This document shows, in pieces, positions 27,861 to 29,495 of a stretch of DNA of 38,004 bases. Source of the DNA: Bacteroidales bacterium (lineage in GTDB: Bacteria; Bacteroidota; Bacteroidia; Bacteroidales; ML635J-15); assembly GCA_028686735.1 (NCBI GenBank), contig JAQUBO010000016.1, forward strand, positions 1-38,004, in the 5' to 3' direction. Below the pieces are notes generated by a model. That model saw nothing but the letters and a program-made list of their open reading frames with translations. It was not told where the DNA came from and did no database searches. Position numbers and translations under genes: made by a program. The first letter of the stretch is position 1. Each line of letters begins with the position of its first letter.

Positions 27861-29495
27861 ATGACAATAACTTGTTACATAAATAACACTAAACAAACAG
27901 CAGATAGTAACGAAACAATTCTATCAGTTTTAAATAGGATTGGAATATCTATCCCCACCTTATGTAACATGAAAGAATTAAGTCCAACAGGAGCATGCAG
28001 ACTATGTGTAGTAGAGAATGTAGAAACTGGAGAACTTATCACCTCCTGTTCAACTCCAATAAAAGAAAACATGAGGATTTTTACCCACTCACCCGAAGTA
28101 ATAAATGCTCGTAAAACAATTATAGAACTATTACTTGCAAATCACCCCGAAAATTGTCTTTACTGTGATAAAAGTGGCAATTGCGAATTACACAAACTAT
28201 CCGAAGAACTAAATATTCGTGAAAAAGTCTTTTACGGCGACCTAATTAGCAAAAAAACTGACCGCTCAAGTCCAGGTATTGTTCGAGATATGTCAAAGTG
28301 CATTTTATGTGGACGATGTGTTAGAATTTGTGATGAAATATTAGGTATTTCTGCTATTGATTTAATTAATAGAGGCAAAAACACCAGCATAGAAACAGTT
28401 TTTCAAAAAGGTTTATTTTACTCCGACTGTATTCATTGTGGTTTGTGTGTTACAGCATGCCCAACAGGAGCTATTATGGCAAAATCTAGTATAAATCAGC
28501 TTATCGAAAAACTTGGGAATAAAAAAACTACCAAGAGTATTATGATACCTACTACTACGATTGCTAGTCTTACAATAAATTATAATATTCGCAAATTCAA
28601 GGATACTCGTAATATGCTTGTTGCAGCTTTGCACAGTATCGGTTTTAACAAAGTTTACCCAATGGCATTATTTAACGACTTTTTTATTAGTGAGGCAACA
28701 ACTATCATCCAAAACAGATTAAAAAACACACCGCAACCACTAATTATCACCGATTGTCCTGCAACAAAACAATATATAAAAATAAAAGAGCCCGAACTTA
28801 TTGACTTTTTATGCAAAATTCCTGCTCCGCAACAAATTGGAGCTAAAATACTATCAATGCAAGAACCTACCGATTTATTAATTAGTGTTAGCCCATGCAT
28901 TGCCCATAAATACGAAGCCGTCCAAACTCAAAACACAAATAAAGGAGTACCCGAAATAGACTTTGTTATAAGTTCAGATGAGCTTGATAAACTAATAAAA
29001 ACTTTAGGTATTAGATTACCATTTTCAAAGAAAGAAACTCCCGACAAACCTGCAAACTCAAATTCATCTGCTGGCGTATTTTTTGAAACCAAACACGGCA
29101 TTACCGAAGGGATTATACGAGAGTTATTTTATCGTTATGACTTAAGCGGACAATTAAATCGAATAATTGAGATTAAACCCGAAAAGGATTTTATTGAGTA
29201 TAAATTCAAAATAAATAAAACATATTATAGTATAGCTTGCATATCAGGTATCGAAAATCTTATTAAACACAAAAAACAAATACTCAATGAGAAATATCTA
29301 TTTGTAGAAGTAAGATCTTGCAAATATGGGTGTATAGATGGATGTGGACAAAAACTAACTGATAATGAAGATATTCAAAAACGAGTAAGAAAAACAATAT
29401 GTGAATATGACGATAAAACAAATATCAATACATCAGGAAAAAACCCTTATATAAAAGGCTTTTATAGAAACAACAAAATTAAAAACATATTTTAA
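27861..29495 (+). CDS. HydA-like subunit with NuoG-type N-terminus and divergent [FeFe]-hydrogenase H-domain
   Basis: [2Fe-2S] TLCNMKELSPTGACRLCVV; HPENCLYCDKSGNCEL; CILCGRCVRIC and CIHCGLCVTACP; H-cluster-like ITDCP, SPCIAHKYE, EVRSCKYGCIDGCGQ. Confidence 0.88.
   Translation: MTITCYINNTKQTADSNETILSVLNRIGISIPTLCNMKELSPTGACRLCVVENVETGELITSCSTPIKENMRIFTHSPEVINARKTIIELLLANHPENCLYCDKSGNCELHKLSEELNIREKVFYGDLISKKTDRSSPGIVRDMSKCILCGRCVRICDEILGISAIDLINRGKNTSIETVFQKGLFYSDCIHCGLCVTACPTGAIMAKSSINQLIEKLGNKKTTKSIMIPTTTIASLTINYNIRKFKDTRNMLVAALHSIGFNKVYPMALFNDFFISEATTIIQNRLKNTPQPLIITDCPATKQYIKIKEPELIDFLCKIPAPQQIGAKILSMQEPTDLLISVSPCIAHKYEAVQTQNTNKGVPEIDFVISSDELDKLIKTLGIRLPFSKKETPDKPANSNSSAGVFFETKHGITEGIIRELFYRYDLSGQLNRIIEIKPEKDFIEYKFKINKTYYSIACISGIENLIKHKKQILNEKYLFVEVRSCKYGCIDGCGQKLTDNEDIQKRVRKTICEYDDKTNINTSGKNPYIKGFYRNNKIKNIF

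What the first reader, a model, noticed from the sequence alone, without database searches (positions are those of the whole stretch)
27861..29495. HydA-like subunit with a degenerate H-cluster pocket and proton path
By hand alignment to CpI numbering, the four cluster-ligand cysteines are kept (ITDCP, SPC, SCKYGC). Several key residues are changed: C299 to D (TSCCP to ITDCP), M353 to S (MPC to SPC), K358 to H (SPCIAHKYE), M497 to R (EVRSC), and the EExTE stretch that supplies E279/E282 reads EATTI. The N-terminal NuoG-like FeS relay is intact. This suggests the subunit is not a standard H2-evolving enzyme: either a low-activity or sensory form, or an electron-transfer subunit that reuses the H-domain. 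A C-to-D change at this position is reported to keep partial activity when engineered, so total inactivity should not be assumed.
Basis: partly seen in the sequence, partly recalled or inferred. Interest (0 to 1): 0.8.

Follow-up and report, generated by a model that had tools for sequence, protein, structure and literature searches.

The report
Eroded hydrogenase subunit beside sensor kinase
A hydrogen-making enzyme subunit in a group of anaerobic Bacteroidales bacteria has kept its electron-carrying iron-sulfur clusters but lost, step by step and repeatedly across the group, the residues that hold the hydrogen-reacting site, while staying in one operon with sensor kinases, so it has probably been converted from an enzyme into part of a redox-signalling device.

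Summary
ORF 27861-29495 (544 aa) is a HydA-type subunit with every accessory Fe-S ligand and all four H-cluster cubane cysteines, but with C299D, M353S, K358H and M497R (CpI numbering). Each of these sites is fixed by closeness to a ligand Cys, so realignment cannot restore them. E279A, E282I and S319A also hold. The protein is under purifying selection (dN/dS at most 0.13). It sits in an operon HydC-HydB-HydA-HyHK (group C1-like kinase)-RR-RR/kinase-Rex-RibF, with HydS-PAS at the 3' end. The HydA-HyHK pair occurs in several other phyla, where every pocket read was intact. In one Bacteroidales clade it eroded stepwise: E279 first, then at least 10 parsimony changes each at C299, M353 and K358, while the cubane ligands stay. 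Eroding operons co-occur with a separate canonical HydABC (63 of 66 genomes, against 2 of 57 intact; phylogenetically close to one event), usually carry Rex, and sometimes lie 8-17 kb from it. The genome has HydE, HydF, HydG and two complete canonical HydAs. Best reading: a HydABC core retired from H2 catalysis and kept as redox input for a kinase cascade. No activity was measured; residual H2 sensing is not excluded.

The parts
25498..25944 (+). HydC / NuoE-like subunit, [2Fe-2S] thioredoxin-like ferredoxin
   Evidence: PF01257 128 bits; its four cluster Cys are invariant in eroded and intact operons
25946..27856 (+). HydB / NuoF-like subunit: FMN/NADH domain plus C-terminal double 4Fe-4S domain
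   Evidence: PF01512, PF10589, Fer4; all Fe-S Cys kept, FMN-site motif DESDPGSFSGR instead of DEGDPGAFMDR
27861..29495 (+). HydA-like subunit with eroded diiron pocket, the finding
28695..28706 (+). A279..I282: proton-path E279 and E282 positions lost
28752..28757 (+). D298 (CpI C299 changed to D) followed by cubane ligand C299 (CpI C300)
28824..28826 (+). A322 (CpI S319, proton path)
28890..28907 (+). S344 (CpI M353), ligand C346 (CpI C355), H349 (CpI K358)
   Evidence: the HyHK next door keeps this Lys
29313..29345 (+). R485 (CpI M497), ligands C487 and C491 (CpI C499, C503), new conserved C495 (CpI 507)
29500..31488 (+). HyHK: ferredoxin + H-domain (ISSDCPA, IGPCIAKK, LLCCEGC) + FeS + HisKA/HATPase sensor kinase, group C1-like
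   Evidence: PF02906, PF04060, PF00512, PF02518; motifs conserved over 17 operons
31491..31883 (+). single-domain response regulator
   Evidence: PF00072; conserved in the operons
31876..32994 (+). receiver domain + histidine kinase
   Evidence: PF00072, PF00512, PF02518; conserved in the operons
32998..33633 (+). Rex, NADH/NAD+-responsive repressor
   Evidence: NCBIfam NF003995 205 bits, over cut-off; in 9 of 10 eroding and 0 of 10 intact operons sampled
33617..34519 (+). RibF-like gene (name from its sequence, not confirmed by a profile search), often next to Rex in eroding operons
36110..37975 (+). HydS-PAS: H-domain protein with ferredoxin and FeS domains and a PAS-like C-terminal part; itself with a non-canonical pocket (NCPPV, SCLAQKK)
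   Evidence: a SpoIIE phosphatase follows it in relatives, so group C3-like. The PAS name rests on family knowledge; no PAS profile matched

Best explanation
The protein is the A subunit of a HydABC (Bfu-type) complex that has been retired from H2 catalysis and kept as the redox-input part of a signalling module. Shown by sequence: HydC, HydB and the HydA relay keep their cluster cysteines and the [4Fe-4S]H cubane keeps its four Cys, but the residues that seat, tune and protonate the diiron subsite are gone and new residues (D299, R497, C507) are fixed; the subunit stays in one operon with the H-domain sensor kinase HyHK, two further two-component proteins and Rex. Inferred: electrons from NADH and/or reduced ferredoxin enter at FMN and run through the HydA clusters to a terminal cubane without a working diiron site; the state of that cubane, or a conformational change tied to it, is passed to HyHK, which phosphorylates the response regulators and adjusts hydrogenase or fermentation genes. 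Catalysis is done by the separate canonical HydABC enzymes.
For: Relay and cubane ligands invariant while C299/M353/K358/M497/E279 vary. Purifying selection. H-domain diverges 1.77x relative to HyHK in the eroded clade against 0.99x in intact operons, N-terminal relay 1.06x against 0.81x. Type II sites at the cluster: D298, R485, C495. HydABC-HyHK-RR-RR/HK gene order conserved in most Bacteroidales operons read and, for HydA-HyHK, in other phyla. Intact ancestral state and repeated stepwise loss. A separate canonical HydABC in 63 of 66 genomes with any erosion against 2 of 57 intact, 8-17 kb from the operon in 9 of 12 same-contig cases. HydE/F/G and canonical HydA present in the same genome. 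No extra oxidoreductase subunit in the operon, only signalling genes and genes of unrelated function.
Against: No direct evidence that HydA touches HyHK or that the complex carries electrons. A few operons lack HyHK right downstream (L146, L148, L150, L055; L282). HydB also diverges faster than HyHK (1.42x) and its FMN-site motif has changed, so the NADH end may be altered too. The link between erosion and a second HydABC is close to one phylogenetic event. Maturases are present, so a full H-cluster could still be inserted.
Confidence: 0.5

Rival explanations
1. It still carries a complete H-cluster and is a slow, tuned H2 sensor or low-activity enzyme, like group C/D HydS, with D299 as the last proton relay and altered second-sphere residues setting the potential.
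For: C299D alone keeps 30-80% activity in CpI (PMC6226526). Group C/D HydS lack C299, M353 and M497 yet bind [2Fe] and turn over slowly (PMC10055695, PMC8163306), and Group D uses another proton path (PMC10407848). Maturases present. The four ligands including the bridging C503 are kept.
Against: K358 is lost as well (H/N/Y/L in the clade, M in the A299 clade), whereas the HyHK in the same operon keeps it. TmHydS keeps the residues that H-bond the [2Fe] site. E279, E282 and S319 are also gone, and in CpI the M497L change alone lost proper [2Fe] insertion (PMC10055695).
Confidence: 0.25
2. It is a Bfu complex with a new third substrate or acceptor: the H-domain cubane hands electrons to an unknown partner, as in the Bfu enzymes that replaced hydrogenase activity.
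For: About half of the 57 Bfu clades are not FeFe-hydrogenases, and in bifurcating NiFe HydABCSL a [4Fe-4S] stands in for the H-cluster (PMC9304861). BfuBC cysteines are kept here.
Against: Those complexes encode the catalytic partner in the operon; here the constant neighbours are signalling proteins. The only candidate partner in the operon is HyHK itself, which leads back to the best explanation.
Confidence: 0.15
3. A decaying leftover: HydA lost its selective value once a second HydABC took over and is on the way to being a pseudogene, kept only by operon linkage.
For: Erosion co-occurs with a second canonical HydABC and the H-domain evolves faster than its neighbours.
Against: No stop inside any of the ten full-length hits in the genus; dN/dS 0.03-0.13; ligand cysteines kept over deep divergence; novel residues fixed.
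Confidence: 0.08

Closest known systems
Group A3 electron-bifurcating [FeFe]-hydrogenase HydABC / BfuABC (T. maritima, T. kivui, A. woodii)
   Same: HydA-HydB-HydC composition, NuoG-like relay, cubane ligands, BfuBC cysteines; best solved match 8a6t by sequence and by fold
   Different: Diiron pocket and proton path residues lost; NCBIfam and TIGR HydA cut-offs not reached; operon full of two-component genes
BfuABCT / BfuTABC clusters of Hydrogenedentota (A3 with group C3, PMC11406978)
   Same: HydABC next to C-type H-domain regulators with PAS or kinase domains; a Hydrogenedentota contig (L098) carries the same HydA-HyHK pair
   Different: There the BfuA motifs P1-P3 are generally conserved and L098 is intact; erosion is not described in that paper's text that I read
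Sensory group C/D [FeFe]-hydrogenases TmHydS and TamHydS
   Same: C299, M353 and M497 replaced, ligands kept, regulatory context
   Different: HydS is a separate protein with a two-cluster N-terminus and a C-terminal FeS domain; it keeps the [2Fe] H-bonding residues. Here a HydABC subunit with a NuoG-like N-terminus has changed, and K358 is lost
Bifurcating NiFe-HydABCSL
   Same: A HydABC core in which a [4Fe-4S] cluster stands where the H-cluster would be (PMC9304861)
   Different: Catalytic NiFe subunits S and L are present there; no such partner here, and the H-domain fold is retained here

Membership tests
Functional group A3 [FeFe]-hydrogenase HydA | NuoF-like gene in the cluster (HydDB rule for A3, PMC5037454) | tested here: met
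   HydB at 25946-27856 directly upstream; HydDB's rule names the downstream gene, here the order is C-B-A
Functional group A3 [FeFe]-hydrogenase HydA | NuoG-like Fe-S relay and four cubane cysteines | tested here: met
   invariant in 50 homologues
Functional group A3 [FeFe]-hydrogenase HydA | H-cluster motifs P1 TSCxPxW, P2 MPCxAKK, P3 ExMxCPGGCxxGxGQ | tested here: not met
   ITDCPAT, SPCIAHK, EVRSCKYGCIDGCGQ
Functional group A3 [FeFe]-hydrogenase HydA | Curated score cut-offs of NF040763 and TIGR02512 | tested here: not met
   395.6 of 765 and 201.7 of 405.95 bits
Functional group A3 [FeFe]-hydrogenase HydA | H2 turnover | not testable with these tools
   needs expression and maturation
Bfu (BfuABC) family core | Conserved Fe-S cysteines in BfuB and BfuC, including the C-terminal clusters of BfuB | tested here: met
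   same Cys columns in eroded and intact operons
Bfu (BfuABC) family core | FMN/NADH site and bifurcating activity | tested here: inconclusive
   glycine-rich loop and GEETAL kept, DEGDPGAFMDR changed to DESDPGSFSGR; activity not testable
Sensory group C/D HydS | Sensor architecture: short two-cluster N-terminus plus C-terminal FeS/PAS or kinase in one protein | tested here: not met
   27861 has a NuoG-like N-terminus and no C-terminal output domain; 29500 and 36110 do fit
Sensory group C/D HydS | C299, M353, M497 replaced while [2Fe] H-bonding residues such as K358 are kept | tested here: not met
   first part met, K358 lost to His. That K358 belongs to those H-bonding residues is family knowledge, not named in the passages read

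The most novel reading that the evidence does not exclude
A pseudo-hydrogenase signalling complex: a HydABC whose A subunit holds only a [4Fe-4S] cubane at the old H-cluster site and reports the NADH/ferredoxin redox state to an H-domain histidine kinase, reached by stepwise loss of catalysis several times within one bacterial order.
Probability: 0.4. Interest if true: 0.82.

Novelty: new variant of a known kind. Interest (0 to 1): 0.62.

Why it matters
It gives a natural mutational series for the H-cluster environment: from intact, through E279-less and natural C299D proteins with everything else kept, to fully eroded pockets, all in one operon context with the same kind of partner kinase. 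That makes two open questions testable: which second-sphere residues are needed to hold and tune the diiron site, and how H-domain sensor kinases receive their signal. It also warns that annotation by HydA domain alone (several of these proteins are named '[FeFe] hydrogenase, group A' or 'iron only hydrogenase' by their sources) overcounts H2-producing capacity in Bacteroidales metagenomes.

Tried and rejected
Misalignment: rejected, since the four main changed residues lie at fixed distance from ligand Cys and relatives show the same register. Missing maturases: rejected, HydE/F/G found; TIGR03957, searched by mistake, is HmdB and not a Hyd maturase. Sequencing error in the window: rejected, the same residues occur in other genomes at 83-88% identity. 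C499F in L040/G012: treated as a likely error, since genes on its contig are split and a protein from a contig of nearly the same length (P0006) has Cys. A statistically independent link between erosion and a second HydABC: not supported by the tree test. Rex operator: the consensus gave 6 matches against 6.1 expected, none in the operon's promoter region; promoter scan uninformative. Paper searches for an earlier report of degenerate A3 HydA found none in the held library; that library lacks most subscription papers.

Full report
WHAT IS THERE. ORF 27861-29495 encodes a 544-aa HydA-type protein. It aligns over nearly its whole length with the HydA subunits of bifurcating HydABC from T. kivui (4e-86), T. 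maritima and A. woodii, and with CpI. An AlphaFold2 model from 50 homologues has pTM 0.83, with most H-domain blocks at pLDDT 80-95 but a poor stretch around residues 122-189; its best PDB match is T. kivui HydA, 8a6t (E 1.5e-40). TM-scores are only 0.64-0.68, as expected if the weak stretch misplaces the domains. The N-terminal relay residues and all four cubane cysteines are invariant over 50 homologues. Around the diiron site the protein has D, S, H and R where CpI has C299, M353, K358 and M497, plus A279, I282 and A322 in the proton path. The first four are placed by fixed distance to ligand cysteines, so a structural realignment cannot restore them.

CONTEXT. The gene is the third of a tight cluster: HydC, HydB, HydA-like, HyHK (ferredoxin, H-domain, FeS, HisKA, HATPase), a response regulator, a receiver-kinase hybrid, Rex, a RibF-like gene, a UDP-glucose dehydrogenase, and a second H-domain protein. 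In relatives that last gene is followed by a SpoIIE phosphatase. The cluster thus resembles a group A3-type HydABC with C1-like (kinase) and C3-like (phosphatase-linked) regulators in the HydDB scheme (PMC5037454). The genome also has two complete canonical HydAs with all motifs, a third partial one, and HydE, HydF and HydG. The genome is a MAG of 404 contigs with 7.4% estimated contamination, so 'same genome' carries that caveat.

DISTRIBUTION. In the genus, 10 of 26 genomes carry this operon-type HydA: nine eroded, one (G019) intact. In an even sample of the order, 125 of 395 genomes have an operon-type HydA at E up to 1e-100. A contig scan with the kinase alignment found the same HydA-HyHK arrangement in Calditrichota, Myxococcota, Elusimicrobiota, Ignavibacteriota, Fidelibacterota, Planctomycetota (Kuenenia), Hydrogenedentota and a few others, all with intact pockets among those read. 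That the non-Bacteroidales operons and the early Bacteroidales branches are all intact makes intact the likely ancestral state.

EROSION SERIES. Over 290 homologues C355 and C503 never change, C499 changes once (a suspect contig), and position 300 is C or, in otherwise canonical sequences, S. C299 is kept in 154, M353 in 169, K358 in 166, M497 in 242 and E279 in 109. On a 111-row tree with the trait columns removed, the Bacteroidales operon HydAs form one clade (80 rows, SH-aLRT 100). Its early branches are intact; a nested clade of 61 rows (100) has mostly lost E279, many members still keeping C299, M353, K358 and M497, and further losses follow. On 123 order-wide genomes the minimum numbers of changes are C299 11, M353 10, K358 13, M497 5. 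Sub-clades reach different end states: A299 with M358 (54 of 57 A299 sequences), D299 with R497 and H/L/N358 (the query's group), and T, S, H, R and L at 299. All 47 D299 sequences have a basic residue at 358 or 497, while only 1 of 57 A299 sequences does (counted). This suggests a salt bridge, or hydrophobic filling, of an emptied cavity; the counts are clustered by descent and this is inference.

SELECTION. dN/dS of the H-domain is 0.085-0.13 in close pairs, so it is not a pseudogene. Relative to HyHK, the H-domain diverges 1.77-fold in the query's clade and 0.99-fold in intact operons; the N-terminal relay 1.06 and 0.81; but HydB also goes from 0.90 to 1.42 and HydC from 1.23 to 1.62. So the whole HydABC part has sped up relative to the kinase, the H-domain most. 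Of seven sites conserved differently between the two groups, three are at the cluster: D298 (92%), R485 (100%) and C495 (96%).

LINK TO OTHER HYDROGENASES. A separate canonical HydA of the L002 clade (called A2 in my tables, not the HydDB group of that name) occurs in 2 of 57 genomes with intact operon HydA, 27 of 27 with only E279 lost, and 36 of 39 with the core eroded. The two exceptions among 'intact' sit inside the eroding clade. This is not an independent-contrasts result: both traits map to the same clade with 3-4 changes. In 9 of 12 genomes where both lie on one contig they are 8-17 kb apart. Rex follows the kinases in 9 of 10 eroding operons and 0 of 10 intact ones sampled, though one intact operon (L048) has Rex.

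HOW IT MOST LIKELY WORKS. Shown: kept electron relay, kept cubane ligands, lost diiron seat, kept operon with kinases. From the literature: C299D alone keeps 30-80% activity, E279A under 1%, S319A 6% (PMC6226526); sensory HydS lack C299, M353 and M497 but keep the residues that stabilise [2Fe] (PMC10055695, PMC8163306). Inferred: with K358 and the glutamates also gone, fast H2 turnover is very unlikely and [2Fe] binding doubtful; the complex then passes the NADH/ferredoxin redox state to HyHK. I hold this at about 0.5, residual H2 sensing at about 0.25, a new third substrate at about 0.15, decay at about 0.08.

COMPARISON AND NOVELTY. HydABC next to C-type H-domain regulators is known (PMC11406978, PMC8163306), and Bfu complexes that dropped the H-cluster are known (PMC9304861). 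What I did not find in the held papers is a HydABC whose own A subunit loses the diiron pocket while staying with the kinase, repeatedly and by steps. I rate it a new variant of a known kind.

Noticed in passing
36110-37975; relatives L037-L056: The second H-domain regulator (HydS-PAS) is also eroded: NCPPV at the C299/C300 motif and Q or H at the K358 position; in L056 (G037) even the ligand cysteines appear lost.
   Followed up: partly
25946-27856: The HydB FMN-site motif changes in step with HydA: DEGDPGAFMDR in intact operons, DESDPG in the eroding ones read, and MDR lost in the query's genus.
   Followed up: partly
29500-31488 and homologues: HyHK itself carries Asp at the C299 position but keeps the K358 lysine in 17 of 17 operons aligned, and it occurs with HydA across several phyla including Kuenenia.
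   Followed up: partly
L146, L148, L150, L055, L282: A few operons have no HyHK directly downstream of HydA; whether it lies elsewhere in those genomes was not checked.
   Followed up: no
L068, L070, L156 and many P-ids: A second large eroded group has A299 together with M358 (54 of 57 A299 sequences), a different way of changing the same pocket.
   Followed up: partly
L149, L153, L169, L170: Natural HydAs with C299D but M353, K358 and M497 all kept; candidates for testing C299D outside CpI.
   Followed up: no
G230, G314, G123, G376 (no loci): HydA matches in open frames of 1106-1136 aa, about twice the usual length, near the canonical HydAs; probably fusions.
   Followed up: no
L040 (G012:C12): Several genes on this contig are split and HydA has C499F, which looks like assembly or sequencing error.
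   Followed up: partly
G000:C116:151-1856: Two tandem stretches similar to the HydA N-terminal relay (HoxU/NuoG-like, 41-43% identity) without an H-domain match.
   Followed up: no
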